Source: Gordius sp. MW1 (taxonomy: Eukaryota; Nematomorpha; Gordioida; Gordea; Gordiidae). Taken from it: a DNA stretch of 64,000 nt. This document shows positions 3,404-60,103 of this stretch, piece after piece (the stretch's first letter is position 1; every line of letters starts with the position of its first letter). The stretch is from NCBI GenBank assembly GCA_964036665.1, contig OZ038531.1, positions 19,406,168-19,470,167 on the forward strand. Direction: 5' to 3'. The notes beneath the pieces were generated by a model. The model had not been told where the DNA came from, searched no databases, and saw nothing but the letters and a program-made list of their open reading frames with translations. The translations under genes and the position numbers were made by a program.

Positions 3404-5231
3404 AAAATTGTACACTTGTGTTTTAATTAATAAAAGAAGTGTTTAATAGTCATTTGCAAAGATTAATTAATTTGAAAAAAAACTTAGCCGTTATATCATT
3501 TTAATAAAAGAATATGGAAAGAGAAGGCTCGGCCAATTTTAAAATCAGAAATAGACTTCGATGCGTTAAAAATGTTTTTTAAGGAGCGCTTTACATTTGC
3601 GACTTTGACCTATATTTTAAAAAATAGCTTTTACATTTCAAATGAACAATTTCGCACGTTCAAAGGCGTCTTAATTTATTCATGCAAATTATGCTTGAAG
3701 TTTGGTATGAAGTTGAAGATTAACATAAACGCTACAATTAGTGCAACAAAATTTTACTTTAATATTTGAGTTTTGACTTCATTTATTAAAAAACACACTT
3801 GCAAGTTTGATCAACCCTCCCATTTCGGTAGTAAAAAAAGATTAATTAACCTTACGTTATTCTACAAATTGTTACCTTGTTATTTTTTAATATTTTAGCC
3901 ACGGACGGTTACTTATCTAGATTGCATAGCAATTGAAAATATGTTGTTATGCAACATAATGAGCTTTTTACTTAATGCCAATGTTAATAACTTAAATACT
4001 TATAAATCGTTAGCATTTATTTTCTTCTAAAAGGCTAAAAAAAGTTTAATTTAATCAAGCATACAATTGAGTCAGATATATGGCAAATTTTTAAAATTCA
4101 CGCCTTAACTTTAACTCATTTCATTGATTATTTATATAATAAAAAAATTGCTTTATAGGCGAACCGAAATATCCACTTAGATCTATGAAAAACAAATCAA
4201 GCCTTAATCAGTTTTGATTGGAAAAGTATTCCCCTCAACACAATTGATGAGTCGAGTTAAAGCGTTAGCATTCTTACCATGTAAAGGTATAACGGTATGT
4301 TGATGCTGATGATTTAAACTTATATGACTAAAAGTCAAGTTTAACATCATAGCAGCATAAAATATATGTGTGTGATAAGTTCAGTTTGCCTCTCATACCT
4401 TTCCCAGTCTCACGCACCATTAAGGCATGGGGTTTGATTGACGTGAAAACACTGGAGAAAAAATGAGGGTTTGAATAAGGTCAAAGGTCGTTGATTCCAA
4501 GACAGCCCCCACTAACCCATGTGGTAGTTGTGTTGTTGTTACATGTTAAATGTCACGTAACCTTACAACCCCCATGCCCCCCCCCTTACCGTTAGATTGC
4601 AGTAAATCGATACGACGGGGTTAAAACTTATGATATGAAAAATTTTTTAAATTATTATTGCATGCACCCCTTTAAAATTGCATATCCTAAAGTGTGCCAA
4701 GGATAATATGGTTGGTTGCATTGCGAACGCCTCAGAATTATACACACACACATCCTTGGCATAAATGGATTCTTAGGGATTTGACCCGAAATGTGCTGCT
4801 ACGCGTTTCTAGGCTTTTATGAACAGCAGAGGGGGATGATCTTCTCCTGATATTATTTACTTTTAAAGGTCACAATGCTTTTGCTTAACACTTAGTTAAA
4901 GTTATGCTTAAAAACTTTTAAGTTTATGCTTATAGCTTCTTCTCATGCTCGACTACTTCCAAATTCAACTTGACCGCTCTAATAACGAACAAATTAATAA
5001 AATTTTGAGTTATGTGATGTAAATTAATACTATACTCGAACTTATTTAGTTATTGTAATTAGAATTACTAACATTTAAAATGTGTAGAGTAAAAACAATA
5101 ATTTCAAATGAGCAGCCAAGGGGCTTCTGGCTTCTTATATTTTGTAATCTTGCTCAATTTTTATTTGAGCCGAGCATTCAGTAGATAGTGATTTTTAATA
5201 TTGAGGAATTCATTTAAATGATTTTAATATT
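3404..5231. other. AT-rich non-coding stretch
   Basis: No gene recognised. It contains isolated G/C tracts (near 4560-4590) and no repeat matched elsewhere in the window. Confidence 0.5.
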
Positions 5232-6510
5232 AATTGATATGCAATTTATGGGCTCGCTTTTGGTTGTCCTGGTTTTTAATGGCTGTGAACTTATGCATTT
5301 TGTTTCGCAAATAGACTATCTAATGACCGCTGGTTGGCTTTTTTAACTACGCCCGAGGCCAATATCCATTTTTGTTTAAAGGCCCCACTGATTACCTTTG
5401 TATATGAATTCTAGGCTGTAGCTTTATAACGGATGTTTGCGGAATTGCCTAAATAATTCCCTGAAAATTAATGCTGACCGTTGCTTACTTCTTCTACCTT
5501 ATCTAACCCCGGCCAAAGGCCATAATTATTAATGGTTGATTGCTATTTATATTTGCTGTTTTGTGAATTTTTGCCAATTTGTCTAGGTTGTTGCTTTAAA
5601 ACGGATGATTGCGGAACATAATTCCCTGCAAATTAATGATGACCGTAGCTTACTTCTATTCTATATTATCTGACCCCGGCCAAAGGCCAAATCTATTTTT
5701 ATTTTTGTGCCTGCACGTTTTAGCATTTTGGTACCTTAGCTTCAAATATAAAAAAAAAAATTTTGGGGCTGAAAATAAATAATAATGACCGCTGGCTGGC
5801 TTTACTTTTTCCCTCTAGATTTTCCCCTCTCGCCCCCGATTACGTCAAATTGACGTCATATTTCGTCGTGTTTACCACTGCGACAGCTTGAAATTTCGAT
5901 TAAGCCATCGGCAACAAATCTTTTCCACGTCTCACCGCACCCCCCTTACAAGGGCCTATGCCTCCACGAATATGAGTTCGAATCTCGGTGGGGGCGAATT
6001 TTTTTCGAACCCATTTGAACACCTGTTACATTTGCCTCAATTAAGCCTACCCCCCCCCCCCCCCCTTACGGGGCTTTTGCCTCCACTAATATGAGTTCGA
6101 ACCTCCGTCAGGACAATTTTTTTTGGTTTTTGGTTTTAACCTAGATTTTGCATTAATAATATATTGTTCTTGTTAATAACATATTTGACCGTCTGATGCT
6201 GACCAATAGAAAAAATGACCACTGGCCAAAGTGCGAATCGAAGAATTTATTTCTATATTTTATCCTTATATAATTATAGACTATTTAACCGTCTGCTTAC
6301 CAATAGAAAAAATGACGACTTAAGTAAAAATCGAAAATTTTTTTTCTAAATTTTGCCCTTATATAATTATAGGCTATTAGGCCTTTTTCAAATTTCTCTA
6401 ACTCCCTGCTTGACCATTGCCCCCTCCCCCTCATAGGCATTCTCGAACCTTCCCCCCTATCTCGCGCATAAATTGCATAGCAAATGTGCTACATTTGTAC
6501 GAAGTATAGA
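5232..6510 (+). repeat. Composite repeat Z (about 1.3 kb)
   Basis: The left end has TTGATATGCAATTTATGGGC (5234 on) and the right end GCATAAATTGCATAGCAAATG (6465-6486), followed by TGCTACATTTGTACGAAGTATAGATGAG as in X and Y. Inside are two diverged copies of a segment of about 170 bp (5410-5530 and 5583-5690, each ending CCCCGGCCAAAGGCC), two tRNA-like B boxes (GAGTTCGAATCTC near 5971; GAGTTCGAACCTC near 6092) followed by T runs, and two tandem-type units (6180-6375). Confidence 0.65.
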
Positions 6511-7004
6511 TGAGTTGTTAATTCAATATTCAGTAATATATGTTAAAAACATCAATAATAATCATGTAAAAACAATAAATCGTTAATTATTTCCAGTCTT
6601 AATCGGGTTCTTCACTCTTCTAATAAGCGACCAGCCGTAGAGAAATTTCGTTCACTTGTGGCACTTGTAGCCGGGATACATGAAACCATAAATGCCAAAT
6701 GAGATAATTTTAAGTACCTAATTAAAGGTTATATTGATTTTACTTTATTTACTTAGCTTCTTTGCCTTTCCACCATTTTCTTTCAATTGAGTTGAGTACA
6801 ATTCAAATTTCGCAGTACTTTTTGTAAATGTATGAATGAAAAATGAAAAGTAAGTGTGTTTGTGTTGCGTATTAGGACACAAAAAAATAAATTTAAATTA
6901 ATAAAAAACAGTTTAAATATAAGACGTTTGTCTTTGTTTAAGTTGTAATTATTTTAAAGTATTTATTACTACACAAATAAAAAATTAACTATTTTGCAAC
7001 GAGC

Positions 7005-9010: not shown

Positions 9011-9289
9011 TGCTGACCTTAGGCTATTACAAGCTACTTATGCTATTCGGCAGCCATATTTTTCAAGTGGTAATGGATAATTATTGCTGTCCGTAAATGG
9101 TAATTTTCAAGCATACAATTATACATGTTTAACGCCAATATATTAGAAGCTGTATAGATCTTGCATTGCTGAAAGTGGAGAAACTTTATTACGTATATTG
9201 GCATGGCATCTAAGGCCAACAATGTGCGAATTTCGGTTTTAGAGCCCTACTAGTATTAATTCCTTTTTATATTTTGTCCTTATAAAACT

Positions 9290-10290
9290 ATAGGCTATTT
9301 GGCCGTCTGCTGACCAATGAAAAGAATGACTACTGGCAAAAGTGTGAATCAAATTTTTACTTTCTATATTTCGTCCTTATATAATTATAGGCTATTTGGC
9401 CGTCTGTCGACCAATCAAAAAAATGACCACTGGCCAAAGTGTGAATCGAAAATTTCTTTATATTTGGCCCTTAAGTATTTATATGCTTTTTGCCCGTCTG
9501 CTGACTGCTGACCAATAGAAAAAAATGACCACTGGCCATAGTGTAAATCGAAAATTTTTATTTTTTTCATATATTATGTATTTATTCGCATTTTGTCCGT
9601 CTGCTTACTGCTGACCAATGCGCGGTCGGCACATGCAATAGCGGAGCTATTGCATGCCGCTGCAACGACTAGCATGTTTAAAGTGTCATGCCCTTATATA
9701 ATTTTTTTACCACGTCTCACCGCACCTCCTCCTTACAAGGGCCTTTGCTTCCACAGATAGGCTATTTATAGCCTTAGACCCGACATTTTTTTAAACCAAC
9801 ACGATCCCGACCCGAAAGCATTTTAATTTTTCGACCCAATAGCATATCACAATTTTCAAAGTGTTCTTAATGGCCGTCTGCTCGCTTCTGAGCAATGGAA
9901 AAATGCCCATTGGCCAAGTGTGATTAGAATAAAATTTTTTGTATGAACGGAGCCCCCAGGGTGGGGTTAGGGGCGAAGTAGCTAACAACGGATTTACTTT
10001 AGCAACTGTCCGTGTATTCCGTACTGCACACAAGTCGGGCATGAATATACCTCACGGTCAACCCTTAGCCTTTTCCAATATTTTCTCCACGATGCTCCTC
10101 TCGATTTAATCATAAATTGCATAGCAAATGTGCTTTGTTTATACGTAGTATAAAAGAGCAATAACCGTAGTGTATGATAATTTAAATCAGAGATATGTGA
10201 GGCAGGCACTGTGTTTGGCTAAATGGGGGTCTGGGGGCGGAGCCCCCAACAAGAGTCTGGGGTCGAGCCCCCAGCTAGGCCCGAAGAGCC
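9290..10290 (+). repeat. Composite repeat V (about 1 kb, right part of the family)
   Basis: Four tandem-type units of about 100 bp (9293-9640, GGCCGTCTGCTGACCAAT...CACTGGCCA), a perfect 11 bp hairpin with GGA loop (9632-9656), then CATAAATTGCATAGCAAATGTG (10109-10131) and TACGTAGTATAAAAGAG. The tail has two GC hairpins (CTGGGGGCGGAGCCCCC near 10231 and TGGGGTCGAGCCCC near 10258). No left end motif was found, so it may be truncated or rearranged. Confidence 0.6.
9632..9656. repeat. Perfect 11 bp inverted repeat with 3 nt loop
   Basis: CATGCAATAGC, then GGA, then GCTATTGCATG. It lies in composite repeat V and resembles the end motif of the family (TTGCTATGCAAT). Confidence 0.8.
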
Positions 10291-11759
10291 TATATTGCTA
10301 CCTGATAATTTTAGAGAGTAGCACGCTCTAGCTACCGTTATTATTGTAGAAATGTTTATTTTAATATTACAAATTTTTTGTCACTACTTGATTACATTAA
10401 TTGAATGAGTTTAGTGCATGATAGTCCAATTTTAAGAAACTTTATTTGCTCTAAGCAAGTCGTCCAATATAAAGCGTCGACAATGAGGGCAAAAGTATAT
10501 TGTGTCATAAAGAATTTATTTAGTATTAACATTATTCTAAAAAAAATTAAAATCTATTTTAATTTACTTACAAAGCAAGAAATACAATCAAGTTATTAAT
10601 TGCAATTTAACCATGACAATCATTGAAAAAGCAATAAACATTGAGATGGTGTCTCATATGTCGGCAATTCTGATATTTTTTTTCTCGATTAGTTTTTGTT
10701 TTCTATCTGTGTTAGCAGATCCAGATTTCAGCCAAGTTAAAAAAAGGATGAACCACAGAGGCACTTAGATTCTAACTAAATATGGAGTCGGAGAATGCAT
10801 TAAATTGAGCAATAAAATTGTTGCCCCTGTCTTCCTTGGCGCGAAACATTTAAAATAAATTCTATGTGAGACGGTTTAGGTGAAAGCCCATGTAATGTCA
10901 TAATTAAGTTTAACTTATGCTCAAGAGCCGTATATATAATACTTTGATTTAAAAATTTAAATAAAACAAACGCGATATAGAAACTAGCGGCGCTACTTTA
11001 CTGTTTGGAACACAAAATTCATCCTTGACGAGCTTTACATTAAAAATAACACTTGATTTATTGCTATCAACTGAGTGAATGAAAAACATGAAAATTTAAA
11101 AATTACATCAAATATGGTTACATGTTAATCATAAATTTGATAAAAATTTAAAAATAATTTGTAAAAAATGACAAATATGCATTATATGATTTGCTGTATC
11201 TCAGTCATAAATGCTAATAAAGCTGATAAACATATTTACTTTGTAACATTATAATTCGAAAGTTTTAATTAAGGTACTATAATATATTATAGTCGCAAAT
11301 TATTCAGACATAATAGTATATGTCAGAACATACTATTAACGCAAGAGCTCTAAACTTATAATAATTTATTTCAAAATGCCTATTTTGTAAAAGAACATTT
11401 TGGGAGATTAGCCTTATGAATGTATAAGTTTTAGTATGAAAAGTAGAAGATATTTGTCCAAAACAAGGCCAGAAACGGAATACGGGTGAAAAGTTCGTGT
11501 AGGCTTTCCATCAAATTTCTGTTAAAATTTAAATTTTAAAAGGATGAGCTTGAATAATAAAGATTATTTCGTGGATTTCATAGTAAAAACGATCCTAAAT
11601 TATTGATTAACGGTGCCCAAGGCACTTTAATTATGTTGGACTGATGTTAAATAACTTAAGATAGTAAAATTTAAATATTAAATTTTTTATGGTAGTGTAG
11701 TGAAGAATTTGGGAAGTAGTCGGAAAGGAATGCAACTCAAGATAAATGTGAGAAACCTA
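10291..11759. other. AT-rich non-coding stretch
   Basis: Nothing recognisable as gene or repeat family. Confidence 0.5.
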
Positions 11760-16000: not shown

Positions 16001-19000
16001 GAGGTCATTTGATTGAAGATTTTAGTTGCCACTTTATAGTTTGCCGTAGTGATCGTAAAGTCGTTATTTGTTTTAGATTATTTTTTTGCAGACTAATGGA
16101 ATAATTATTAGCATCTTGAGAACTTGAAGAAAGCTTCATTTTTTGGGGAAACTAAGTGATAAAGTATACTCTTTTCCAAGGCTTTTTATAAAATTGTTTA
16201 ATACATTCCCTCTCTAGTTTAAAAAAATGTAAATTATACATTTTGATGATAATTACTTGGTTAAGGCAAATAGAGCAGTCTTTTGTGAAAAGATTGAATG
16301 ATTTTTCAAAACAACTTGCACACTTAGAAGTATTAGTATTAGAAACGATTAAAGAGCTTTTAAAATTTAATAATTATCTTCTTATTCAATTTAAGCAATT
16401 TTTGAAATGACGTTAAGCAGACGAAATTTAAGCTTAAAAGAGTAATATATGTTTGAATAAAAACAACACTTAAATTATTTTATAATACTTTTTAAAGGGT
16501 GATTATTGAGTTACTTATATAAATTCGTTTAAATTTTCGCTGTAAATGAGAGGTTGACATAAAATTAAAAAAAATAATTTATAATAATTTATAATAGTTT
16601 GTAATAATTATATTTATATTTTAAACCTGTAAAATATTGTTCCCCTGTTTAAAGTAAAAGCGTGGAAAATATGTTAAAGACGCGCTCATTGCATCATTAA
16701 TTACATCTTCAAATTAGGCTATTCAGACAACACATTGTTTGTCTAGGCCACGCATAAATTCACGCTTGCTTGCCAGCCATGTATAATAATTCCAACCCTA
16801 GCTTGTCTTATATATTAAATTTTTTTAATTTCTACACAAACTCATACTATTTTGGTCTAAAATATAATTTAGTTTATATAAGAACGATCTGTTACAAATT
16901 GTGAAAAATTGCCCTCTGCTAATTAATTTGACCCTCACCCGTTAAAACCAAATTTGTATGCAGCAGAGACTAGAAACACTCGGCCCGTTTGACCCACGGG
17001 CTGGGCAACGGTCGTAAATTTAGATTTTGGGGGCTGACACCATTACAACATTCGGGCTTAATGTGATTTTTTATGTGGCATTTTATTTTGTTTTCGCGTA
17101 TCATTTTTTGATTCTAAATAGGAATCGTAGTTGTTATCAAAAAATTGTTTGAAAAATAATGAAATATCTACTAAAGATTAAAAATCGCCATTTCGCCCAG
17201 ACCGTTTGGCTAACTTTAATGGTTCGGGCGGCATGGCCGGGGGAGCACTTAGAAGGGTCGGGCTGGCAACCTAGTTTTAAAATAGGGCCAAATTTTGATC
17301 TAAGCACGGCCTTAACTAAGACTTGGAATAAACGAAGCTTTAAAAGTTTGTTGTAGATTAAGGGAGGGAGGGGGGGCATGGGCGTACTTAGGGGGGGGGC
17401 AGCCCCCCTAATTTAAAAAAAAATATTTCAATGCGAAAACATTGAAAAATTAAAAAAAATTATGTTTTGCCCCCATCTAAATGAACTTTTAAACGTTTTG
17501 CCCCCCCCCCCAATTCAAAACCTGGGTACACCCATGAGGGGGGGGCAACCGACCCTCTTGGTTATGCGTTTGAAAATTAAACCCCAAACCCTCTCCCATA
17601 GTTCATAAGAATTTCTTGTCTTTTACTAAAGTATTTACCTATCAAATTTGAAATAAGCTATTATTAATCACTTCTTTTAACGTTTTAATTTTAAGAGACC
17701 CATGCATAACAGATTTAGTGGGCTTCGAAGATTTAGCAATTATAACTTAATACTTTGAATCCCCGATTTGACCTATCCTCTGGTATAGGGAAATTTATTG
17801 AATTGTATTATTAAGAAGCGATGTACCTTTTTAAATATTGATGTAATGTTTTAAAATATAAATGTTTGTGAAAAGGTCATTTCAACTAATTGTTTTCCAA
17901 TCAATCTCTTCTCGTTCATTTAATGCAGCAATTAGTGTTAGTTGATCAATCTCTACGTGTGCCATTCGGGGTCAATAATACCTCATTTGATTCCCGCAAA
18001 TCGTCAACTCCTCTCTGAACACATCCTCCTTTGTATGAGTTAATCGATTTCTAAAAACGCATAATGGTGCGGAAGCTGGTAATTTGCATTAGGTTGTTAC
18101 AAAACTCTATATCCCTAAGTGGCCATAACTGGACATCATTTAAAATTTTAGCAAAGTGCAAAATTTTTGAAAAGCTTAGCACTTTCAGTCCGTTTTTAAA
18201 TTAATTGTTAATTGCTATGCAATTTATGGGCTCGTTTTTTGGTGTCCGTCGTCCGTCCGTCGTCCGTCGTCCGTTACCCTCCCTATCTATTTGCATTGGG
18301 TATATTAGGTTATCGCTTTTTTAAATTAATGCATGAGAAAGAGGTGCCCCACCTCTCATCTCTATCAAGAGGTGCCCCACCCCTCATCTCTATCTCCCTC
18401 GCTTTCGGGCGGGGTCGGGTTTTAATTGCTACGTTAAATTAATGCATAAGTATATCTATATTTAAATTTTGGTAATTGCTATGCAATTTAACTAGTTTTG
18501 GGGTTAGAATCCCGGAGTTTTTTTGACTCTTATGATTGTTCTTGTTACTATCATTGATAATAAGACTTTTTGGCCGTCCGCTGGCTGCTGACCAATGAAA
18601 AAAATGACCATTGGCCAAAATGTGAATCCGAGTTTATTTTTTCGTTTTTTTTTTGACTATTATGATTGTTCCTGTTACTACCATTGCTATTATGACTTTT
18701 TGGCCGTCCGTTGGCTGCTGACCAATGGGAAAAAATCACCATTGGCCAAAATGTGATTCGAAATTTTTTGTTTTCGTTTTTTTTGACTATTATGAATTTA
18801 TATCCACTTTTACCGTGTCCTGGCTGCTGACCAATGGAAAAAAATGACCATTGGCCAAAATGTAATTCGAAATTTTTTTTTTAGTTTTTTTTGACTATTA
18901 TGAATTTATATCCATTTTTACCGTGTCCTGGCTGCTGACCGATGGAAAAAAATGACCATTGGCCAAAATGTGATTCGAAAATTTTTTTTAGTTTTTTTTT

Positions 19001-22000
19001 GACTATTATAAGTTTATATCCACTTTTACCGTGTCCTGGCTGCTGACCAATGGAAAAAAATGACCATTGGCCAAAATGTGATTCGAAAATTTTTTTTTCG
19101 TTTTTTTTGACTTATGAATTTATATCCACTTTTACCGTGTCCTGGCTGCTTACCAATGAAAAAAATGACCATTGGCCAAATTTTATATATAACCTAAAAA
19201 TTTATTATAGATGGTCTAACAGACAGCCAACTATGTAACATATATTTTTAACCTTATAAATGCAAATATATTTTTTTATTGGGTTAATATATTTCATTTA
19301 ATTAGATTGTGATTTCATAGAAAACCTAAAAAGTAATATTTAAAAAAATAATATAGGTATTAGATTCTAATTTACGATAAAATATATCGATAGAAACTAA
19401 CACAAAATTCGAAACCTCCTTCAAAGGTATAATCATAGCCCGTTATTTCTAATTAAATTGAATCTACTATTAAACTCAAACACGAATTGTACTTTATTAG
19501 ATGGCGCGCGTAAGTTTATATAATTAGTAAAATTTTTCTACGTGTCATAGATATTACACCGCACGTGTGGCAGGGAAATGTCCGATATATTTAAAATGAA
19601 AAGGTATTTTAGGAATCTGAAAAGGTTTTACTCCCGGCCGCCCTGGGCACCTACGGGTAAAGTTTCGAGCGAAACGGGCTGGTAGTTTAAGAATTTAGCC
19701 CTTTTTTAAAACTAAAAAAAAACTTTTTTTTTTAATTTTTTTTTTACATTAAATTAATATTTTGTTTTTGTTAATACCATTGATAATATGACTTTTTGAC
19801 CGTCCGCTGGCTACTGACCGACGAAATATATTGATTTTCTAAACATAAAACACAACTTTATTATTTCATTATCTATATAAATAACATAATAACTTCTACT
19901 ATTTTAAAGCCAACATGGTATAGTGGTTATAGCGCCGGCTTGTGAACTGGAGGTGTGGGTTTCAAGTCAGGGAGGGCACAAAATTTTTTTTTTAATTTTT
20001 TTTTAATTTTTTTAAATTAAATTAATATTTGTTCATGTTAATACCAATGATAATATGAATTTTTGACCGTCCGCTGGCTACTGACCAATAAAAAAATGAC
20101 CATTGGCCAAATAAATCGAAATTTTTTTTCGTTTTTGAATTGGTTAACATTGATAATTACCCTATGTCCTCCCCTACAAGGGCCTATAACTAATTAACTA
20201 ATTATTTTGCATCTAATACCCCCTATAGGCATTCTCGCCCCTTCCCACCTTTCTCGCCCATAAATTGCATAGCAAATATGCTACGTTTATACGGAGTATA
20301 GAAGAGTTCCCTCTTCCCTTCCCCTCTTCCCTTCCCCTACTCCCCTTCCCTTCTCCCCCTTCCCACGAGGGCCGAAGGCCCGAGTTTTTTAATGTAAGGA
20401 TCGACTTTTTTAGCTTACTGATTTTACGTGATCCACTTTACTCGACATTTAAATCGAAAAACTTTTAACTTTCGTTTTTGGTCCCTTATTGTAATTATAA
20501 TTATAATTTTTTGACAAATTTTTTTTGGAAGTGCTAGTGGGTAGTAAATTATCGCCCAGATTTCATCTTAATTTCAAATTTTACCGTCCACTCTTTTATT
20601 GAAGGTTTTTAGTGCGTTATTTTATCATTAAGCTGCTAGTCGATGAATCTTATAAATATATCGGATTCATTTCTACGTATGCTCTAAAAAGGTGCTCCAT
20701 ATCGGTTATTGATTAAAATTTAGTCTCTATCCATCCTGTTGCTGCATGGCTACAATATTCATGCTGTATTTGTTTTTATGGGCGTAGCCAGGGGGAGGGG
20801 GGCTGGCAGAGAGGGGCTGCTTCCCCCCCCCCCTCTAAATCCAAAAATTTGTTAAATTTATTAAAATTATGGGTAAAATTTTAAAAAATGATTGCCCTTC
20901 CTTAAATCATTATTGCCCCCCCCCCTCTCTAATCCCAATGCTTGCCACGCCCATGTTTGTTTTTATAATAATATATCACCTTGGGAAATATTAGGACTAT
21001 TGATTAGGCGTGGATAAACAACAGTGGTTGTGGCGAGTTGTCTAAAAAAGAGTTAATTTCCAATTCATTTACGCATGTTAAATATATTTGCAATTTTTGC
21101 CCTCTTTATCTAAAAAGAGCGCTAATTTAGTTGTATAAAAGTCTTTTGCATTAATACCGCGATACACAGCTTGTGTTTTTTATAATTTATACTAATAACG
21201 TTTTGATGGTATATAAAATGTTTTGTTTTTCCAATTTAAAGTTTTGTTCAAATTTTTTTATATTTTGTCAGAAATTCTTTTCTACATCTATACGTCGGGG
21301 ACCACGGGCATGCCCAAGGCAGCTATCGTATCTCACGTCAAGTAAGTCTATATCTCCTCTCCATATACGTAATTGTGTCGCTTAACTTGAAAGTTTTTTA
21401 TGTTTAAAGCTTTTATACTAATAAATCGAAGTTTCTTAACTATTAAAACGGTTTTTTAAACGTTTTTTTGAATTCTTCTAGCTTAGGCGTTGCTTGATAA
21501 TGTTTCAACCCTAAATTAGTGCAAAACCTGGTTAACGCTCTCTTTTAATCTCGAAACGTATAGATTTTAACATTGTGGTGGTGTAAGGGTGAAAATTAGG
21601 GGAAATTAGGCCGAGAATGTGTTTCTACAATCTCACTCCTAATCTCGGAGGGAATGGAAGGGGGAGGAGAAAGGCGAACTAACATATGGTTTTTGCTTAT
21701 TCAACCACCACAAGTTTAAAACCAAATTACTAGTTCTTCACACTCCTCTAAACCCAAAGTTTTTTTGTGGATATATTTCGTCGATGAAATTAGAGCCCTG
21801 CCTGGGCCGGGCTCGGGCCAAAAATTAGAATTTAATTGGGCCTCGGACTCGGGTTGGGCCTGATGGCCGAGCCCGCCCTGAGGCAAATTCTAGCTAGATT
21901 TTTTTAAACTTTTTACCAATTCCTTTGCTGAGTAGGCTATTTAGAGGAGACAAGATATTTTTATGTTAAATCAAAGGTGCGGGTGCGTATTCTGAATGTA

Positions 22001-31894: not shown

Positions 31895-32020
31895 CATGGG
31901 CTGAGCCAGCATTGGAGTTAGAGGGGGGGCCAAATGAATACGGGAAGGGCAAATTGATGATTATTTGAAATTTTTGGATTTAGAGGGGGGCAGCCGCCCC
32001 TCCTCCTGGCTACGCCTATG
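31895..32020 (-). mobile_element. MITE family A copy (short)
   Basis: CATGGGCTGAGCCAGCATTGG to TCCTGGCTACGCCTATG; internal CAGCCGCCCCTCC. It lies just after family B copy 31668-31827. Confidence 0.85.
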
Positions 32021-32260: not shown

Positions 32261-32430
32261 CAAGGGCGTGGGCAGGATTTGAATTAGAGGGGGGGGGGGC
32301 AATTATGATTTAAAGAGGAACAAAATGTTATTATTCTGAAATTTGGGCCATAACTATAATAAATTCTAAAGATCTGTTCGATTTAGAAGGGGCAGCCGCC
32401 CCTCCCTGTCTCCCCCTGCCTACGCCCATG
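32261..32430 (-). mobile_element. MITE family A copy
   Basis: Left end CAAGGGCGTGGGCAGG, right end CCTGCCTACGCCCATG; internal GGGGCAGCCGCCCCTCCC. Confidence 0.82.
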
Positions 32431-36724: not shown

Positions 36725-36875
36725 CATGGGCGTACGCAGGGGGGGGGGCAAGGGAAAAAAAATTTCAATGCAAAAACATTGAAAAATTAAAAAAAATTAT
36801 GTTTTGCCCCCCTCTAAATGAACTTTTAATTGTTTTGCCCCCCCCCCCCTAATTCAAAACCTGGGTACGCCCATG
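36725..36875 (+). mobile_element. MITE family B copy with exact 8 bp target duplication
   Basis: CATGGGCGTACGCAGG to CCTGGGTACGCCCATG; flanks CTAAAATA at 36717-36724 and 36876-36883. Confidence 0.93.
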
Positions 36876-37893: not shown

Positions 37894-38071
37894 CATGGGC
37901 GTAGCCAAAGGGGGGGGGGGGGGTAGGGAGGGGCGGCTGCCCCCCTCTAAATCCAAAAATTTGTTGAAATTTATTAAAATGATGGCTAACATTTTAAAAA
38001 ATTATCCATTTGCCCCCCCCCCCCTAAATCGTTATTGCACCCCTCCAACCCCAATGCTGGCTGCGCTTATG
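37894..38071 (+). mobile_element. MITE family A copy
   Basis: CATGGGCGTAGCCAAAGG at the left; GGGGCGGCTGCCCCCC core; right end GCTGGCTGCGCTTATG. Flanks AAACGTTG and GAACGATG match at 6 of 8 positions, a decayed target duplication. Confidence 0.88.
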
Positions 38072-41650: not shown

Positions 41651-44600
41651 CGAAGTGGTCTCCTACTCAACCATGACAATGTTGACAGATTCTAACATGA
41701 CATTTAAATTTACCGATCATTCCCCAGGCAACACAGCTTCCATGATAGTCCCGACAAAACTTAATTCGGGCCATTCTGCCCCACAGATAACTATAACTAT
41801 CGAGGTAAATAAAATTTGGCATTTTTCATTATATTTGATTTAATTTGATTTTTTTATTAATAAATTAATACCCTGCACTCTATTGAGCTTTTAATCTTAT
41901 TCAATTAGTCTTTGGTCAACTTTTCTAAAATATTAAAAATGGGAAAACATTTTCAAGTTAATCACAAAGAATCTAATTTTTGATGATTCTTATTAAATGT
42001 CTAAATTTGATTTCAATTTGAAACTAAACACTATTCACAAAAAAACTTAGCAAAAATGATTGGTTTCCGATTGATTTAATCAAAAAGATTGAAATTTCAT
42101 TAATAACAAAATATTGTTTAGTATAATAGAGCAGTTTATCACTATTAGAAACAAAATATTACTAATCGACCCGATCGCGGTATTTTACAATAACTTTATG
42201 GAATATAATTAGATTTATTGTACACATCAAATGACCTTCCTTAATATTAAAATTAATAAATTTTTAAAAGCTTTTTACAACGCGACACTAGTTACCTATT
42301 TTTTAATAAAATTAATCGATTAAAAAATTTTCAAGGACTCTTGCATGCTTAATCACCTGCTCACTTTATAAAATGCCCTATAAAATTTCCCTGGTTACTT
42401 TTTAGACTTCTCTATTTTATTGATAAAATTTGGTCGTACTTTGTATGATTAGAGCCAAAAATCAATTATGGAACTTATTTCAAACTTTATATGTTCAAAC
42501 TTATAATAATTTCTAACTTTAATTCAAATCCTCGCCAAGCCTTAAACTTTTTACATTCTTTATAAGTTAGAATGGGCGAGTTAGTTCAAATAAAGGTAAA
42601 CGAAATTTAACGTATATTAGTGGTTTTTATATTGTAAAACAATCAGAATCTTCTTTTTTTGCTAGCAAAGGATTTGTTAATAGTCAATTTATTTACCCCC
42701 TGATTCATATTTCCATAAAATTTTGCAATAGTTTTTTATAGGGAAAATGTAATAATTTATTTCATATTTTTTTTGATGATTTATAATATTCAATGGTGAC
42801 CATGAATATAAATGAATGTTATTAAAAGATGAGCTAATTGAGCTAACTCATTTTAACGGACAATTTATTTACCAATCATCCGCTATACAATTACTCCTAT
42901 AAAACGCCTAAATATCAAAATTTGTAAAAATTTAAATAACTAGCAGTTACCCATAAAAAATATTATTGTATTTTAATCTTATTTGTAAAAAGGATGCATT
43001 TGTCATTTAAACCAATGATGTTTGGTATTTTAACATCTTATATTTATAGGTTCTATGCGATAATTATTCTAAAGTCGCAATTATGTTAGGGCGGAACAAG
43101 TTAATCAGATTAAAAAGGGATAAATTAATTTACTTATAAAAAAGTTTATTAAATGTTACTAATTTGTCACAGGCTATTTCAAAGCATCATGGGCTTAGCC
43201 CAGGAATGGGGGACAGGGAGGGGCGGCTGCCCCCCTCTAAATCCAAAAAATTGTTGAAATTTATTATAATTATGGCTAAAATTTCAAAAATTGATCATTT
43301 TGCCCCCCTCTAATTCCAAGGCAGGCTACGCACATGGCTGTCAGGAATGTAAATGGTCAAACACTTTTAATAATAATGATTACTTTTGTAACGATGTTAG
43401 TTGGACGTTCAATTTCTCATCAGCTCTTTTATGGATTTACATAAAAGGGTGATAAATTTTATTCACGAATTTATTGAAACCTTTATAATATTTTGATCTT
43501 CAACATGAACGTAATTTAGGATTAGATTTAGGTAAAAGAGCAAAACTGAGAAGGCTTAAAAAACATAAAATCACATTAGTTTCCAATTTCGCTCTTATTA
43601 AATTAAATTAAATTTTATGAAAAATCGATTAAATTTTTATAACTTGTCAAACAAAGGTCCAACCCGTTGTTCCTTTTATTGCTCATAATTAAGACAAAAT
43701 AATCTCCATTTAATTCCATTTCGAATCACTATTAAACATACACAGTGTGATTTATAATTTTGAACCGTTTATATATTTATAAGTATATTTAAAATCAATT
43801 AAAATATCGGTCAAATTTTTGGGACAAATATTTTTGGATTTTTAATAAAATCTGAGAAGAATTGAATTAACACATTAAACTGAGCATAAGTCATGATAGA
43901 TTTGAATCTCATAATTTTATTCAATTTGGTGTTCTCACAAAAGTATGCTATTTCTGCGACCTCAATGAAAACCTTTGTTAATAATAAAGATTTTAGTAAA
44001 AATTAATTTATAAGTCTGCTGCCCAACCATTCCAAAATGAAATTAATTTTAAATTTCAAAAAAATTATATAACCCTTCTTTGACTCGATGTCAAACCTTT
44101 GCCCCTCTTAATAACGGGAAATCATTAGTAAATAAATTGGATTTAATAATTTTGCACTGCATTAGATTTGTATCCCGAATTCAGTAGAATTCCTTGATAG
44201 GAAAACTGTCAATGAGCTTTTTTGCAAATGCTCTATAACAACATAAATATCTAAGAATCAAATTTGTGGTCACGTGTCATTATGTATGGGCTATATAAAA
44301 AGATGAAGCTTTTTTTAACTTTAAACCCTTTAACTTCTACTAAAGAAATTCTGATTTAATTAAAAATATCGAAAAAATAAGTCACCCTTGATAATAAAAC
44401 TAGGATTTAGCATTAATATTGTTTCTCAATCTTGCCAAAATTTAAAATCTTTAATGATTCATGCATGTTGAAAGGATCAATGCCTGAATTGTTGAGAGGA
44501 CATATCAATATGACATTTGTGATACTCTGATTGAAAGACTTATATTGATTAGTTATTTTTAATTTATTGCCCCAATTGACACTTTCCCCTAATTTTGTCA

Positions 44601-47600
44601 GAAAATGATAAAGTACATGTATAAGCGTGACGTATTTGGTTTGTCAAAAATGTTTCAAATGTTTATTGGGGAGCCCTTAAATAGAATTATATATATTGAT
44701 TATCTGTAAAGCCTGCAAAAATATTTATTTAAAAACTTTTTATCTCAGTAAGATAAAAATACGCCCTTCGGGCGTAACTGGGGGCTTCGCCCCCAGACCC
44801 CCTTGGGGGCTTCGCCCCCAAACCCCCTGCTGGGGGCTCCGCCCCCAGTCCCCCGTTGGGGGCTCTGCCCCCAAACCCCCGTTGGGGGCTACGCCCCCAA
44901 ACCCCCATCTCCTGGGGGCTCCGCCCCCAGACCCCCGGAGAAGGGGGAGATGGGAAGGGGGGGGGGAAGGGAAGAGGGGACGACTCATCTATTCTACGTA
45001 TAAATGTAGCTTATTTGCTATGCAATTTATGGGCGAGAAAGGTGAGAAGGGGCGAGAATGCCTATAGGGGGGTATTAAAGGCAAAAGAATTGGACTGACG
45101 GGCATAGGTAGGTATCAATGTTAGCCAAAAAAACGTAAAATTTTATTTTGATTTACAATTTGACGAAGCGGGAAAATATAAATGAGTAATGTCGGCTGGA
45201 TAAAGTATATAAATATCATCTTTATTTTTTATTTTTTAATAAATGAAATTAGGTTAAACATTTTAGGTTAGGAGGGTGAAGGGGCTAAAATGTAACTCTT
45301 GGAGGAAGCTTTATTGAAAGTTTTTGTCATTTAGTGGGGGGGGGACTAGTTTTGCCTGGGTTTTGCTTGGTCGACCTTTTGTTCAAATAAGAAAACCCCC
45401 CTAAATGACGAAAAAAAAATTTTTGAATGAAAAAACTAAAAATTAAAAATTGTAGGTTTGGCCCCCCCCCCTGATTGAAATTTTAAACGTTTCGCCTCCC
45501 CCCCAAACCAAAACCTGGCTACGTCCATGTCCCTGTCTGATCAATTAAATTTCATTTTTGATAAACATGTTTTTACGATAAAATGTTTTTTAAAAGTGTA
45601 CTGAATTATAGAGTTAGACGTCATTTAGTGGTAAAAAGTGGGAAAGTGAAGGGAAGTTGTGGCAGCACTAGCGATACGATCAGCCACGTTTTTCATAGCA
45701 AAGACCAATGGCGGATGGGGGTTTGGGGGCTGGCGCTCTAACATAAAAACTAGTTTTATTAGTTAATTTTTATAACACAAAAACTAAATGTTAATATGTT
45801 TGGGAATAAGTCATATTATTAATGGTATTAACAGAAACAATCATAAAAGTCAAAAAAACGAAAAAAAATTTTCGATTCACATTTTGGCCAAATGGTCATT
45901 TTTTTCATTGGTCACTACCAACAGATACTCTATAAGTCAATGTTAGCCAAAAAAACGAGGAAAAAAATTTTACTTCATACTTTGGCCAATGGTCATTTTT
46001 TTCCAATGGTCAGTAGCCAGCGGACGGCCAAAAAGTCATATTATCAATGGTAGTAACAGGAACAATCATAAGAGTCAAAAAAACGAGGAAAAAAATTTTA
46101 CTTCATACTTTGGCCAATGGTCATTTTTTTCCAGTGGTCAGTAGCCAGAGGACGGCCAAAAAGGCAGATTATCAATGGTAGTAACATGAACAATCATAAT
46201 AGGCGGAAAAAAGCGAAAAAATAAACTTGGATTCACATTTTGGCCAAATGGTCATTTTTTTCCATTGGTCAGCAGCCAGCGGACGGCCAAAAAGTCTTAT
46301 TATCAATGGTAGTAACAGGAACAAACATAATAGTCAAAAAAAACCCCGGGATTCGAACCCAAAAACTGGTTAAATTAACAAAAATTAAAAGTAAACAAAA
46401 AAGACATTCGGTGCAAGACATCCACGTTTTTTTCATTGGTCAGCAGCCAACGGACGGCCAAAAAGAAATATTATCAATGGTAGTAACAGGAACAATCATA
46501 AGAGGCAAAAAAAACGCAAAAAAAAATTTCGTTTAACATTTTGGCCAAATGGTCATTTGTTTACAGTGGTCAGTAGCCAGCGGACGGCCAAAAAGTCATA
46601 TTATCAATGGTAGTAGCAGTTACAATAATAATATTCAAAAAAAACCCCGAGATTCGAACCCAAAAACTGGTTAAATTAACAAAAATTAAAAGTGCATATC
46701 CACGTTCGGTTCGGTGCGTGACATCCACGATTCCATTGGTCAGCAGTTAACGGACGGCCAAAAAGTCTTATTATCAATGGTAGGAACAAGAACAATCATA
46801 AGAGTCAAAAAAAAACGCAAAAATAATTTCGCTTCACACTTTGGCCAAATGGTCATTTTTTTATTGGTCAGCACCCAACGGACGGCCAAAAAGTCTTATT
46901 ATCAATGGTAGTAACAGGAACAATCATAATAGAAAAAAAAAATCCCGGGATTCGAACCCAAAAACTGGTTAAATTAAATTAACAAATAACAAAAATTAAA
47001 AGTGTGTGACATCCACGTTCGGTGCGTGACATCCACGTTTGGTGCGTGACATTCGGAAAATGGAAAGTGAGCCCATAAATTGCATAGCAATTAATATAAA
47101 AGTTCTACTTCGGCAGCACATTGCAAATCTAGCAATTAAGATAAATACAAAAAGCAAACGATAAGCTTTATATTTAATTAAAGAATTTAATCTATTAATT
47201 TTTTTTTTAATTTCGATTAAAAAGGAATTGTATTGTAATTGTGCTTTTAATATCGCTAAAATTTACGGCTCTCTAATAGATGAACTATACAATCGTATAA
47301 TAATAGAGAAGATTTCTTTAATAGATCCAAAAAAGTTATAGCAAGCAATAGTAATATTTTAAAAAGATCCCAGTAATTAATTACCATAAAAAGAGTGATA
47401 AATTGCTAAACAATTAGTTCATGAAAATTCTAAATGTTTCACAGTTTTAGAGGAATATAGAATTTGAGGTTATTATGCTGTTGGTTGAGGTAGATCTTTT
47501 TGATTTGGCATATATGCTATTGCAGCAAGCTCTCTTATAACGGATGTGCGTGTCCTAATTACGCTGATAAGCTGCTCATCCATAAAATATTAGTATCTAA

Positions 47601-53600: not shown

Positions 53601-56600
53601 ACCTAGTTCCGAAATATATTTGTTTTAAATTTTTTTAATTCACTTAAATCTCGTTAAAACTAGAGGGTTTTATTTTTTATTATAAAGTTCCAGGCATTTT
53701 ATAAGATTTACAATGCGTTTTCGTAAAATGAATTCTTTAAATATCGAACCGATTATTATTAATCTTCTTCATCACGTATTTAGTCCCACACTTGTGAGGC
53801 TTGTTTTTTTTAGTTTTACTGAGAGAGTTTGAAAATAGGTGTCAACGATCTCCTTGTCGTATACTTGGGATACTTGAAGATGTTTTTCCCGTTCTTTGAA
53901 CTTCAGACCATGCCAATAGCCACCATGATTTCGCTCATACCTAGAACGAACTTTCTCTACGTGGGCTTTGAAGCCCGCCCTAATAATTATCTTTTCTTCC
54001 TGTCTTATTATTTGAAATATTATAATTTTGGAGAGGGTGTTTATTGCCGGGTTTCGACCTGAAGCCAACCCTTCACATTTTGCACTCATCTATTTTCAAA
54101 AACTACTGATAGAAATGGGAAGCATTTTAGTTAACTTGACTATTTGCTCAACGCGAAAGGGATGGAGGATCAAAAATTGCTAAGGAATACAGGGGGAAGA
54201 AATCGCTAGGCAACTTGGTTCACACGTTATGGAGCTTGAAAAAAAATATTTCGCGAACTAAGAAAGATTATGAACATCGAATTAGATACAAAAGCTAAAG
54301 GATACGTAGACGAACGATATATACCATCAGGAAGCCTCCACGCTCTTGGGTGCCAGTAAGTTAGAAAGGGACGTAGACGACTAACACACGCTAACTGCGG
54401 AACTAAAGGAAACGGTGATTCAGGCTCTTGGACAAACCAAAGGAGGCAAAACAAAGTATTGGGAACTATGGTGGTAAGATAAATCTGTTAGGGATTTTAT
54501 CGAAAGAAGGACAATTCTTTTAGAGGGTGGCATAAATCAAAATGTCGGAGGAGTATCAAGAATACAGATAGGCAAAGAGAGCCGCAAAAAAACATAATTA
54601 TGGACACCATAATTAGGGACATTCAAAAAGCATTTTTGGTGTATGCTATATGCGAAGAGATGAATGAGAAAATTCGAAGAAGCCGAAAAGTGGTCAAAAA
54701 GCTTAGTTGGATATGGCTAAAAGATCAACGATTGAAAAACTGTATACATGGAGAGATGGACGTTACAGGCACCAAATAGCTAAATGACCATCTAAAGTAC
54801 CCAAAAGTAGACAGGTTTAAATGCCTAGTTCGATGCTACATCGCAGGGCAAAATAAGTCAATGCACGGATCCAAAAAGGATGGCATAAATGGCGGTGTAA
54901 ACCTGGTGTGATGTACAACAAGAAGATGCCAATATGGTTGAAGAACAAAGCTTATAAATCCATCCTAAGACCGGTGTTACTCTATGGAGTGGAACATGAG
55001 CATTAACGTGGGAGATATGGAGGAGTTTAGGGTATACTATCGACATACGACAAATCACAGTTTCAGGGCGAAAATGGCCATTCAACCTAAGGCGGACTTG
55101 AATTGTTTAAGTTGGTATGATCATATACTAAGATGGGAGACGAATAATGTAAATCGAAAAGTAAAGGACATGGAGGTGCCGGAAAAGAGAGGAAGAGGAC
55201 GGCCTCGTATTATGTGGAATGGGCACTTAAAGCGAGGAAAATTAATCAGGACATGGCGCTTAGCCGGTCAAGATATCAAACCGATCCCCACGATTGTGGG
55301 ACCTAACACATGATAAAGAACAAAAAGAACATTAAAGCCCATGTCTGGATCAATTTTCTAATCCCTTTTAACTTGCCCTTATTCCTTATATTCAAGATAT
55401 TTCGATTAACATCATCCACACTACCCAAGCCAATTTTTATTTTTCATCTTCGACATATGTTAAAAATACTCGTAGGCAGTCAATATGAACGAGCTTTTTG
55501 TAGTTTAAGCCTCTGCCTCATTCTAATCCCCGTGGCTTGTATTAATTTTCATTCCTTCGCGTTTTTTAATCGGATTTGCAAGCTTTGTTTTTAACCACAG
55601 ATACCGGTAATCTCTCAAATACATTAGATAGGAGAGTTACCTTTTAAGCCATACTCTTTGAGTACTTACTTTTATTTCCTTTGATCACTTGGTATAGAGC
55701 TGAGGCATTCAAGTTTATTTTAATACCTCTATAAGAAATATCTAGTTAGGGGGGGGGGGCTATAACTTTCATCTCTAATTTTTTCCCCCATATTTAACTT
55801 TCATGCCATATCCTGCCAACCGTTTCCACCTTCTAACTTTGTTAAATTTTCTTTTCCTCCTCCCATAGTATTATATATCGGTTAGCGTATACCAAGGACC
55901 AAGGAGATAAAGCCCTCAGCGCCCATAATTCAATAATAAAAAGGAATATCTCGGCATACGTCTTTTAGAAAAAGATAATCATTTTTAAGATTTTCCCAAA
56001 AGATAAATACCAGTAAGTGCGTAGATCGGTGGTAAATTAATCTGATACATTTATAATTTTCACAACCCTAAAGTGCCGTGGTGATATCTAGCTTGCTCTT
56101 TATTAATTGAAGGTTCAGCCTTCGCCAATATCTTGTCAAAAGTAATGGTCGTGGCTCCTTCTTATGGCCATCCTATCCAGGCTTCCATCGGTACTCTTCA
56201 TTCTGTTCATTTGTAATCTGCCTAATCCTAAAAGAGTTCTACCAAATTTATGATTGGTTCTACATCAACAGAGAAAATTTTGTTGTTAGCCTTTTTTTCG
56301 AAAACTCATTTTCACCTTTCGAATGTTTCTTTATGTTTGCAATCTTCTTCACTCATTCCTATTTTATATTCCGCCCAAACTTGTGCCCAATAATTTGTAG
56401 CCTTTCTGGTGTATTTATCTCTTGACACCTTTTCTTTTAGCATTTTTTATTCAACCTGTACACATTGTTATTTCTGAATTTAATCTCCTCTCAAAGTTCA
56501 GATTACTTGGCGATTTCTTCCACCAATATAAAATTGCAATCCTACATCCATCCGTCTTATGGTCAAATATTCAACTTGTGAGCAATGTTTAGAATACATG

Positions 56601-57531: not shown

Positions 57532-57666
57532 CATGGGCGTAGCCAAGGGGAGGAGGCAGGGAGGGCCGCTGCCCCCTCTAAATCCAAAAATTTGAAAAAA
57601 TAATCCTTTTGCCCCTCCCTAAATCATTATTGCCCCCCTCTAATCCCTATGTTAGCTACGCCAATG
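57532..57666 (+). mobile_element. MITE family A copy with exact 8 bp target duplication
   Basis: CATGGGCGTAGCCAAGG to GTTAGCTACGCCAATG. Flanked by TATATATG at 57524-57531 and 57667-57674. It lies 73 bp after the last identified RhoGEF exon. Confidence 0.9.
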
Positions 57667-58203: not shown

Positions 58204-58388
58204 AGATTATTTAATTTGCGAAAATTACGAATTTCGATATGATCACCACTTTAAAATGTGCCTTTCAAAATGGTGGAAAAAGGGTACACTTTGTGAGTTG
58301 ATGAGCAGTCTATCTAGTCTATGCCTATCCCTGACTTATGATCATCTCTAGAAACCTTTTCATTTCCATCTATTGTGTTTGGCAAGCG

Positions 58389-58390
<2 letters not shown>
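58204..58390. repeat. Target-site duplication, left copy (187 bp)
   Basis: Identical base for base to 59724-59910 at a constant offset of 1520 bp. It immediately precedes the poly(T) of the LINE. This is the pre-insertion host sequence duplicated by the insertion. Confidence 0.92.
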
Positions 58391-58427
<37 letters not shown>

Positions 58428-59723: not shown

Positions 59724-59910
59724 AGATTATTTAATTTGCGAAAATTACGAATTTCGATATGATCACCACTTTAAAATGTGCCTTTCAAAATGGTGGAAAA
59801 AGGGTACACTTTGTGAGTTGATGAGCAGTCTATCTAGTCTATGCCTATCCCTGACTTATGATCATCTCTAGAAACCTTTTCATTTCCATCTATTGTGTTT
59901 GGCAAGCGCT
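59724..59910. repeat. Target-site duplication, right copy (187 bp)
   Basis: Perfect copy of 58204-58390. It starts with AGATTATTTAATTTGCG directly after the 5' end of the LINE and ends GGCAAGCGCT, followed by only six T in total before host sequence resumes. Confidence 0.92.
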
Positions 59911-59932
59911 TTTTTAAACGGATACAAAAGTT

Positions 59933-60103
59933 CATGGGCGTAGCCAAGAGGGGAGGGGGGCAGGAAGCGGCGGCTGCCCCCCTTTAAATCCACAAATTTG
60001 TTACAATTTATTAAAATTATGGCTAAGATTTTAAAAAGGGATTATTTTGCCCCTCCCTAAATTATTATTGCCTCCCTCTAATTCCAAGGCTGGCTACGCC
60101 CAG
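59933..60103 (+). mobile_element. MITE family A copy
   Basis: CATGGGCGTAGCCAAG to AAGGCTGGCTACGCCCA, with the GGCGGCTGCCCCCC core. It begins 22 bp after the right target duplication of the young LINE. Confidence 0.88.

What the first reader, a model, noticed from the sequence alone, without database searches (positions are those of the whole stretch)
44755..47093. Undescribed composite repeat family X/Y/Z/V with inverted TTGCTATGCAATTTATGGGC ends
Four loci (5232-6510, 9290-10290, 18209-20396, 44755-47093) share the same end motif, tandem units around GCTGACCAATG...CCATTGGCC, tRNA-like boxes and a right tail with C/T tract and hairpins. X and Y have the same order of parts in opposite orientation over 2 kb. 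It matches no simple class: inverted ends as in DNA transposons, Pol III boxes as in SINEs, and satellite-like interior.
Basis: partly seen in the sequence, partly recalled or inferred. Interest (0 to 1): 0.85.

Follow-up and report, generated by a model that had tools for sequence, protein, structure and literature searches.

The report
Rolling-circle transposon family with hairpin ends
These four repeats look like copies of one non-coding jumping-gene family of a known kind (rolling-circle transposons that carry satellite-like repeats), and hairpins near their 3' ends share an unusual three-base loop on one strand, which could be the signal that tells the copying machinery where to stop.

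Summary
The 20-base motif occurs 7 times (0.03 expected): at both ends of three loci and the right end of a fourth. The loci share tandem CCAAT/ATTGG units and a right end. The "no simple class" reading does not hold: the inverted repeat is terminal on the left but internal on the right, where all four copies share a further block with a 9-pair palindrome. Target duplications do not exceed chance; RNA models show no tRNA. This is the anatomy of HINEs (non-autonomous Helentrons such as DINE-1, Cg_HINE, Pearl): probably a new HINE family (0.85). Empty sites and an autonomous partner could not be tested: no genome is held.

One feature not seen described in the papers read: hairpins at and beyond the 3' end have C(GNA)G loops, on the element's own strand (11 of 26 perfect triloop hairpins inside the copies, 0 of 113 outside). 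Eight of those 11 lie in tails whose membership is uncertain. Such loops give very stable DNA hairpins and extrude in phage N4 promoters. I propose strand-specific rolling-circle terminators; the evidence is small and post hoc.

The parts
44760..47092 (-). Focal copy (Z here), 5' end at 47092, 3' end at the terminal hairpin 44760 (or at about 44983 if the C/T tract and hairpins are not part of it)
47071..47092 (-). 5' palindromic inverted repeat of the focal copy (AATTGC-TAT-GCAATT palindrome plus TATGGGC), TT just outside
47002..47052 (-). short 20-base tandem repeat near the 5' end of the focal copy
45849..46894 (-). central tandem units (CCAAT...ATTGG), in part in a 301-base higher-order repeat; B-box-like 11-mers at 46349, 46650 and 46948
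45396..45530 (+). piece of a different repeat family inside the focal copy (also at 17377, 31668; related 36725)
45015..45034 (+). 3' subterminal inverted repeat of the focal copy
44986..45006 (-). 3' palindrome of the focal copy, loop C(GTA)G; one of nine pairs broken
44940..44983 (-). C/T tract shared with copy X
44760..44930 (-). array of seven G+C hairpins with triloops GAA, GAA, GAA, GGA, AGA, GTA, GGA on the element strand (6 of 7 are GNA); two shorter alternative triloop hairpins with loop AAC overlap it; a T run follows (44755-44759)
18208..20388 (+). Copy X
18210..18231 (+). 5' palindromic inverted repeat of X; a CCGT/GTCC-type microsatellite follows (about 18244-18275)
18474..18488 (+). 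second, internal copy of the 5' palindrome in X, next to the B-box-like motif at 18502
18565..19182 (+). central tandem units of X (further unit hits at 19791-19831 and 20061-20136)
20256..20304 (+). 3' subterminal inverted repeat (20256-20275) and 3' palindrome with loop C(GGA)G (20284-20304) of X
20307..20390 (+). C/T tract, terminal hairpin GGGCC-GAA-GGCCC (20369-20381) and T run of X
5230..6516 (+). Copy V: 5' repeat 5232-5253, units 6184-6347, 3' repeat 6464-6483, 3' palindrome 6492-6512 with loop C(GAA)G (contains G-T pairs); no C/T tract or hairpin tail seen
9258..10292 (+). Copy Y, no 5' end: units 9295-9620 and 9870-9940, 11-pair hairpin with C(GGA)G loop 9632-9656, 3' repeat 10108-10127, 3' palindrome C(GTA)G 10136-10156, tail hairpin 10232-10248 and an imperfect one 10276-10292

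Best explanation
The four loci are copies of one non-autonomous Helentron (HINE) family: non-coding DNA elements moved by a rolling-circle Rep/helicase supplied by a partner elsewhere in the host. Shown by sequence: a palindromic inverted repeat at the 5' end, its inverted copy inside the 3' end, a palindrome beyond it, satellite-like central units, no recognised coding content in the frames tested, and no target duplication above chance. Inferred: the partner nicks at the 5' palindrome, peels off one strand, and stops at a 3' hairpin; the product is inserted at T-rich sites; the central units expand as passengers. Inferred with less certainty: the 3' hairpin works through its C(GNA)G loop on the transferred strand, and the C/T tract with further C(GNA)G hairpins in X and the focal copy (hairpins only in Y) is an extended 3' end, gained by read-through past the first hairpin, that supplies back-up terminators.
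For: 7 motif hits against 0.03 expected. Asymmetry: the left repeat is terminal (9, 12, 12 of 31 bases agree outside it), while right flanks agree at 23-26 of 31 in all six pairs. The 4 right ends share 17 invariant subTIR columns (4-20); the published family rule is at least 11. The 3' palindrome pairs in 91.7% of its cells; with the small hairpin inside the subTIR 94.2%, against 27-60% when slid. The subTIR is itself palindromic, as in mite and Culex HINEs. X has a CCGT/GTCC microsatellite behind its 5' repeat, as in DINE-1 (GTCY) and Cg_HINE (GTCY/GTCC). All 4 copies carry central units. Direct repeats at 8 candidate end pairs are 0-6 bases. No transposase domain in 16 ORFs tested. TT lies just outside the left repeat in 3 of 3 copies that have one. 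C(GNA)G loops: 11 of 26 perfect triloop hairpins (stem 5 or more) in the copies against 0 of 113 outside; in the four 3' palindromes the middle loop base is A, T, G, T while C, G, A, G do not vary.
Against: No empty site or autonomous partner could be sought, as no genome is held. Only 1 of 3 copies with a 5' end has the GTCY-type microsatellite. With the minimal 3' end the subTIR is about 32 bases from the terminus, a little less than the 38-60 given for mite HINEs; with the extended end it is far more. Subterminal repeats, a 3' hairpin and a CTGT microsatellite also occur in Hel-2 elements that have canonical TC/CTAG ends, so these features are not exclusive to Helentrons. The 5- and 6-base direct repeats at three of 8 candidate end pairs lie in the upper tail of the null (5 or more: 382 of 3000; 6 or more: 134 of 3000). 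No pair of the palindrome changed on both sides, and shuffling the 3' letters gives the same paired share. With DNA energies only Y's 3' palindrome folds as such; V and the focal copy give no fold, X another one; and strand differences are small and of mixed sign. The GNA count is post hoc and depends on the tails: 8 of the 11 hairpins lie in them (6 in one tandem array), 3 do not; if the tails were counted as outside, the contrast would largely go.
Confidence: 0.85

Rival explanations
1. Cut-and-paste DNA transposon or MITE with about 20-base terminal inverted repeats, as the first reader's 'inverted ends' suggest.
For: Perfect 20-base inverted repeats flank X and the focal copy. A 5-base word TTAAT recurs at one candidate end pair each of V and X, and a 6-base word at one of the focal copy.
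Against: The right-hand repeat is not terminal: homology runs on past it in all four copies. Direct repeats at the 8 candidate end pairs are 0-6 bases; random pairs have a median of 3, 382 of 3000 reach 5 and 134 reach 6. The TTAAT of V is at the short end, that of X at the long end; the focal copy has no TTAA beside its long end.
Confidence: 0.05
2. SINE or other Pol III retroelement, moved by a LINE.
For: B-box-like 11-mers with a T run after them, 4 hits with <=1 mismatch, all in this family; a stretch in X (about 19914-19985) that resembles a tRNA to the eye.
Against: No tRNA among Rfam matches at E up to 5 on the window or up to 10 on three stretches; ARAGORN 0 at default; the motifs lie in inner units of 2 of 4 copies; no target duplication above chance.
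Confidence: 0.03
3. The C/T tract and G+C hairpin cluster are a separate repeat that happens to lie next to the right ends, and the element ends just after the 3' palindrome (GAGT), as copy V suggests. This does not exclude the HINE assignment.
For: V has no tail; Y has hairpins but not the C/T tract. In mite HINEs the 3' palindrome lies 8-35 bases from the terminus.
Against: X and the focal copy are about 85% alike over 164 aligned bases across palindrome and C/T tract; Y and the focal copy share a 24-base exact match in the tail, found nowhere else in the window; T runs follow the last hairpin in X and the focal copy.
Confidence: 0.35
4. Satellite arrays with chance or recombination-derived flanks, not mobile.
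For: Central arrays are satellite-like.
Against: Four separate places with the same non-repetitive right end, three with the same left end.
Confidence: 0.03

Closest known systems
HINE elements of mite and Culex (non-autonomous Helentrons, PMC4067079)
   Same: Palindromic subterminal inverted repeats, inverted copy subterminal at the 3' end, 3' palindrome, T-rich flanks, no coding, optional tandem repeats.
   Different: Longer inverted repeat (20-22 bases against 12-15 in mite); a 3' tail with several hairpins after three of four copies, with a C/T tract in two. Loop sequences of published HINE palindromes were not visible to me (figures and supplements).
Cg_HINE of Pacific oyster and the Pearl elements (PMC7492417)
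   Same: Satellite-like central repeats between HINE flanks, GTCC/GTCY-type microsatellite after the 5' repeat (here in X).
   Different: Units here have periods of about 93-130 bases, with a 301-base higher-order form in the focal copy, against predominantly 140-180; sequences not compared directly.
DINE-1/INE-1 of Drosophila (PMC2374699)
   Same: 5' inverted repeat terminal or nearly so, 3' one clearly internal, CCGT/CTGT microsatellite, central repeats, 3' stem-loop with 7-11 base stems just after the 3' repeat, TT insertion preference.
   Different: DINE-1 subTIRs are 13 bases, of other sequence, and not palindromic.
Hel-2 Helitrons of Lepidoptera (PMC4344730, passages)
   Same: Subterminal inverted repeats, 3' hairpin, CTGT microsatellite.
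   Different: Canonical TC and CTAG ends between A and T, which are absent here.
Helraiser, reconstructed bat Helitron (PMC4778049)
   Same: 3' hairpin as terminator; its loop rather than its stem sequence matters; bypass gives new 3' ends.
   Different: Canonical TC/CTAG ends; loop is ATT, not GNA; its 3' end is helpful but not essential.
Phage N4 early promoter hairpins (PMC4496689, passages)
   Same: C-G closing pair with G first and A last in the loop, needed for extrusion from supercoiled DNA; the two strands behave differently.
   Different: A phage RNA polymerase promoter; only an analogy of DNA structure.

Membership tests
HINE / non-autonomous Helentron | 11+ base subTIRs, 5' copy 0-4 bases from the end, identical among members | tested here: met
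   20-base repeat at both ends of X and focal copy (exact), V (1 mismatch each); 17 invariant subTIR columns (4-20) in four right ends
HINE / non-autonomous Helentron | 3' copy subterminal (38-60 bases inside in mite) | tested here: inconclusive
   Clearly subterminal; distance about 32 bases with the minimal end, over 100 in X with the extended end
HINE / non-autonomous Helentron | Palindrome between 3' subTIR and 3' end | tested here: met
   9 pairs, 91.7% of cells paired in four copies; no double changes; predicted DNA fold only in Y
HINE / non-autonomous Helentron | Microsatellite (often GTCY) behind the 5' repeat | tested here: inconclusive
   CCGT/GTCC in X; a 20-base repeat in the focal copy; none seen in V
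HINE / non-autonomous Helentron | Central tandem repeats in constant orientation | tested here: met
   All 23 hits with E<0.001 lie in the four copies, on the element strand
HINE / non-autonomous Helentron | No target duplication | tested here: met
   0-6 bases at 8 candidate end pairs; 6 or more in 134 of 3000 random pairs
HINE / non-autonomous Helentron | Insertion at TT / T-rich sites, shown by empty sites | not testable with these tools
   TT outside the left repeat in 3 of 3; no genome held
HINE / non-autonomous Helentron | Autonomous Rep/helicase/endonuclease partner with the same ends | not testable with these tools
   No genome held; none recognised among 16 ORFs given to Pfam (6, 10) of 144 stop-to-stop ORFs of 60 aa or more
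Canonical Helitron | 5' TC and 3' CTRR, insertion between A and T | tested here: not met
   5' end TT/AATTGC; candidate 3' ends GAG(T/C), GAG before a T run (X), GTA before a T run (focal)
TIR transposon / MITE | Inverted repeats terminal on both sides, with target duplication | tested here: not met
   Right repeat internal; no duplication above chance
SINE | Pol III promoter (A and B boxes) from a tRNA, 5S or 7SL gene near the 5' end | tested here: not met
   No tRNA, 5S or 7SL family among Rfam matches, ARAGORN 0 at default; only B-box-like motifs in inner units

The most novel reading that the evidence does not exclude
In this family, and perhaps in Helentrons at large, the 3' terminator is a strand-specific C(GNA)G minihairpin of the kind that extrudes from supercoiled duplex DNA in phage N4 promoters. 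The loop, not the stem, is the signal; elements can collect arrays of such hairpins as back-up terminators after read-through. That would explain how a rolling-circle transposase finds its stop in double-stranded DNA and which strand it takes.
Probability: 0.2. Interest if true: 0.65.

Novelty: new member of a known kind. Interest (0 to 1): 0.35.

Why it matters
The part worth following is the loop rule. Thomas et al. call for biochemical work on how Helentrons transpose, and in Helraiser the loop of the terminator matters more than its stem. A fixed C(GNA)G loop on one strand can be checked at once in any Helentron alignment.

Tried and rejected
Rejected: TIR transposon (asymmetry, no target duplication above chance); SINE. 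ARAGORN with introns allowed gave 0 at its full threshold, 16 calls at 90% and 106 at 80% (only the end of each list was printed). At 90% three of the printed calls overlap X or the focal copy, with introns of 197-1256 bases; I treat them as noise. The best Rfam match in the copies by bits is flavi_FSE in the focal array (24.4 bits, gathering 43, E 0.28), then Gut-1 at the focal copy's 20-base repeat, 23.5 bits against a gathering score of 50 (E 0.018 on that stretch; 3.6 on the window); I take both as chance.

Led nowhere: the motif in viral contigs (0) and three further patterns there (0, 0, 0). In genome contigs 2 loci of one Saprospiraceae MAG matched; I read all 8000 bases of L001 and the first 4000 of 8000 of L002. 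The motif lies at the start of the same coding-like sequence in both; profiles of unit and right end find nothing there beyond the motif itself and hits of E 0.08 or more, so I take them as chance. A distant search of X in plasmids gave one weak match (74 bases, 79%) to a Buchnera plasmid in an A+T-rich stretch. Printed-sequence searches: full motif and long pieces 0 papers; shorter pieces 12 papers, 9 listed, none on transposons by title. Searches that combined Helitron with GNA, triloop or loop-sequence terms showed no paper on GNA loops in Helitrons among the 15 of 288 and 12 of 63 listed; the unlisted ones I did not see.

A possible U6-like start next to the focal copy (47100-47121, resemblance recalled) had no Rfam support.

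The C(GNA)G test was thought of after seeing the hairpins, so its Fisher p of 1.2e-9 overstates the case. Of the 11 hairpins 6 are in the focal tail array, 1 in the tail of X, 1 in the tail of Y, and 3 elsewhere (3' palindromes of X and Y, and one inside Y); the 3' palindromes of V and the focal copy are not perfect and are not counted. If the tails were counted as outside, 3 would be inside and 8 outside. With stem 4 or more: 11 of 58 inside, 2 of 327 outside. C-G-closed triloops of stem 5 or more only: 11 of 17 inside, 0 of 7 outside (all). Allowing G-T pairs and mismatches (7 of 9 pairs), C-G-closed triloops in the copies are 13 GNA, 0 TNC and 8 other. A passage of PMC6544945 sums up Helraiser as showing little effect of hairpin changes on colony formation, which is at odds with my use of it; the section of PMC4778049 itself reports about 35% of colonies and 8.8% corrected efficiency without the hairpin.

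Full report
Setting. The window is 32.8% G+C and looks like animal DNA: spread-out exons of an SLC27-like gene between 13359 and 27309 (Pfam AMP-binding at 13359-13694, just above its cut-off, and at 23315-23635 below it; the gene name is from my reading of the translations) and a reverse transcriptase piece. No genome is held for it, so everything below rests on copies within 64 kb.

The observation. The motif TTGCTATGCAATTTATGGGC occurs 7 times with up to 3 mismatches where 0.03 are expected. I call the copies V (5230-6516, +), Y (9258-10292, +), X (18208-20388, +) and Z, the focal one (47092 to 44760, minus strand). V, X and Z have the motif at both ends, inverted; Y only at the right end. 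Self-comparison shows the shared parts of X and Z in the same order in opposite orientations. A unit profile made from 4 seeds gives 34 hits, 23 of them with E below 0.001, all in the four copies. A right-end profile, built from the four right ends and so matching them by construction, finds no fifth right end: its next best hits (E 0.0009 and up) are left-end repeats, then weak ones.

Ends. The left repeat is terminal: beyond TTAATTG the three flanks agree at 9, 12 and 12 of 31 positions, where random pairs average 8.6. The right repeat is not terminal: 23-26 of 31 positions beyond it agree in the six pairs. That stretch contains a 9-pair palindrome (91.7% of its cells pair; both helices together 94.2%, against 27-60% when slid; no pair changed on both sides, and shuffling the 3' letters leaves the share unchanged). 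The inverted repeat contains a palindrome of its own, AATTGC-TAT-GCAATT. Direct repeats at 8 candidate end pairs are 0-6 bases long; 382 of 3000 random pairs reach 5 and 134 reach 6. Just outside the left repeat there is TT in 3 of 3 copies.

What it is. Palindromic subterminal inverted repeats, the right one internal, a 3' palindrome, satellite-like central repeats, a CCGT/GTCC microsatellite behind the 5' repeat (in X only), no recognised coding content and TT at the left flank are what Thomas et al. 2014 (PMC4067079: Background, Results parts 1 and 2 of 3, Discussion; passages), Vojvoda Zeljko et al. 2020 (PMC7492417: Results, and Discussion part 1 of 2) and Yang and Barbash 2008 (PMC2374699: passages) describe for HINEs, Cg_HINE and DINE-1. 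By the 2014 rule (at least 11 identical subTIR bases) the four copies are one family; by the subfamily rule (80% over the last 60 bases), as far as the 53 columns stand for it, V, X and Z are 87-89% alike and Y 75.5-81% like them. Hel-2 elements of Lepidoptera show similar subterminal repeats and microsatellite with canonical Helitron ends (PMC4344730, passages), so the terminal letters, not these features alone, separate the two classes.

Tail. In X and Z the homology runs on into a C/T tract (164 aligned bases from before the 3' repeat on, 85%), then hairpins and a T run. Y has no C/T tract but shares an exact 24-base hairpin stretch with Z. V has neither. I read the tail as an extended 3' end, possibly made by read-through as shown for Helraiser (PMC4778049: passages with the abstract, and one section), but it may be a neighbouring repeat.

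Loops. On the element strand, many triloop hairpins at and beyond the 3' end are closed by C-G and have loops GNA: GAA, GTA, GGA and GTA in the 3' palindromes of V, Y, X and Z, 6 of the 7 main hairpins of the Z array (two overlapping alternative hairpins there have AAC), the terminal one in X, one in the tail of Y, and an 11-pair hairpin inside Y. Over the window, of perfect triloop hairpins with stems of 5 or more, 11 of 26 inside the copies and 0 of 113 outside are of this kind, all 11 with GNA on the element strand; shuffled windows have 0.95 on average, at most 3 in 100 shuffles. Eight of the 11 lie in the tails, so the contrast rests on counting these as part of the copies. GNA loops are known for extraordinary stability as DNA minihairpins (PMC6479982, passages, citing Yoshizawa et al. 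1997), and the same loop rule governs extrusion of N4 promoter hairpins from supercoiled DNA (PMC4496689, passages). In Helraiser, changing the loop together with its closing pair was as bad as deleting the hairpin, while changing the stem left about 90% activity. Against a general rule: Helraiser's own loop is ATT; DNA energies show no consistent strand preference and fold only Y's 3' palindrome as drawn (with RNA parameters, V's folds with nine pairs); the hairpins of one array are not independent; the test is post hoc.

Pol III. B-box-like motifs exist, but no tRNA model matches.

Verdict. Most likely a new HINE family, ordinary in kind, with one testable oddity in its terminator loops.

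Noticed in passing
window 222-320, 1651-1794, 2150-2317, 3262-3390, 15157-15300, 20778-20955, 23896-24037, 29129-29296, 31895-32020, 32261-32430, 37894-38066, 43188-43316, 57532-57666, 59933-60102, 61084-61251, 61378-61494, 62790-62961: A short dispersed repeat of up to about 180 bases with a C- or G-run, in both orientations, at about 17 places by my reading of the table; not classified.
   Followed up: no
window 17377-17536, 31668-31827, 36725-36875, 45396-45530: Another repeat family of about 160 bases; one piece sits inside the focal element.
   Followed up: no
window 58204-58395 and 59724-59915: A 192-base direct repeat, 100% identical, 1.5 kb apart, around and partly overlapping a 417-residue open frame (58517-59770, minus; no Pfam match) and next to a 37-base T run; could be a recent duplication or LTR-like.
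   Followed up: no
window 18474-18488: A second 5' palindrome inside copy X, 264 bases from the outer one, so X may be one element with a new 5' end added or a nested pair.
   Followed up: partly
window 7809-9010 and 54591-55328: Reverse-transcriptase piece (7809-8498, RVT_1, E 7e-22); 8172-9010 and 54591-55328 are related DNA (71% identity).
   Followed up: partly
window 47100-47121: Just outside the focal copy's 5' end, a stretch that resembles the start of U6 snRNA from memory; no Rfam support.
   Followed up: partly
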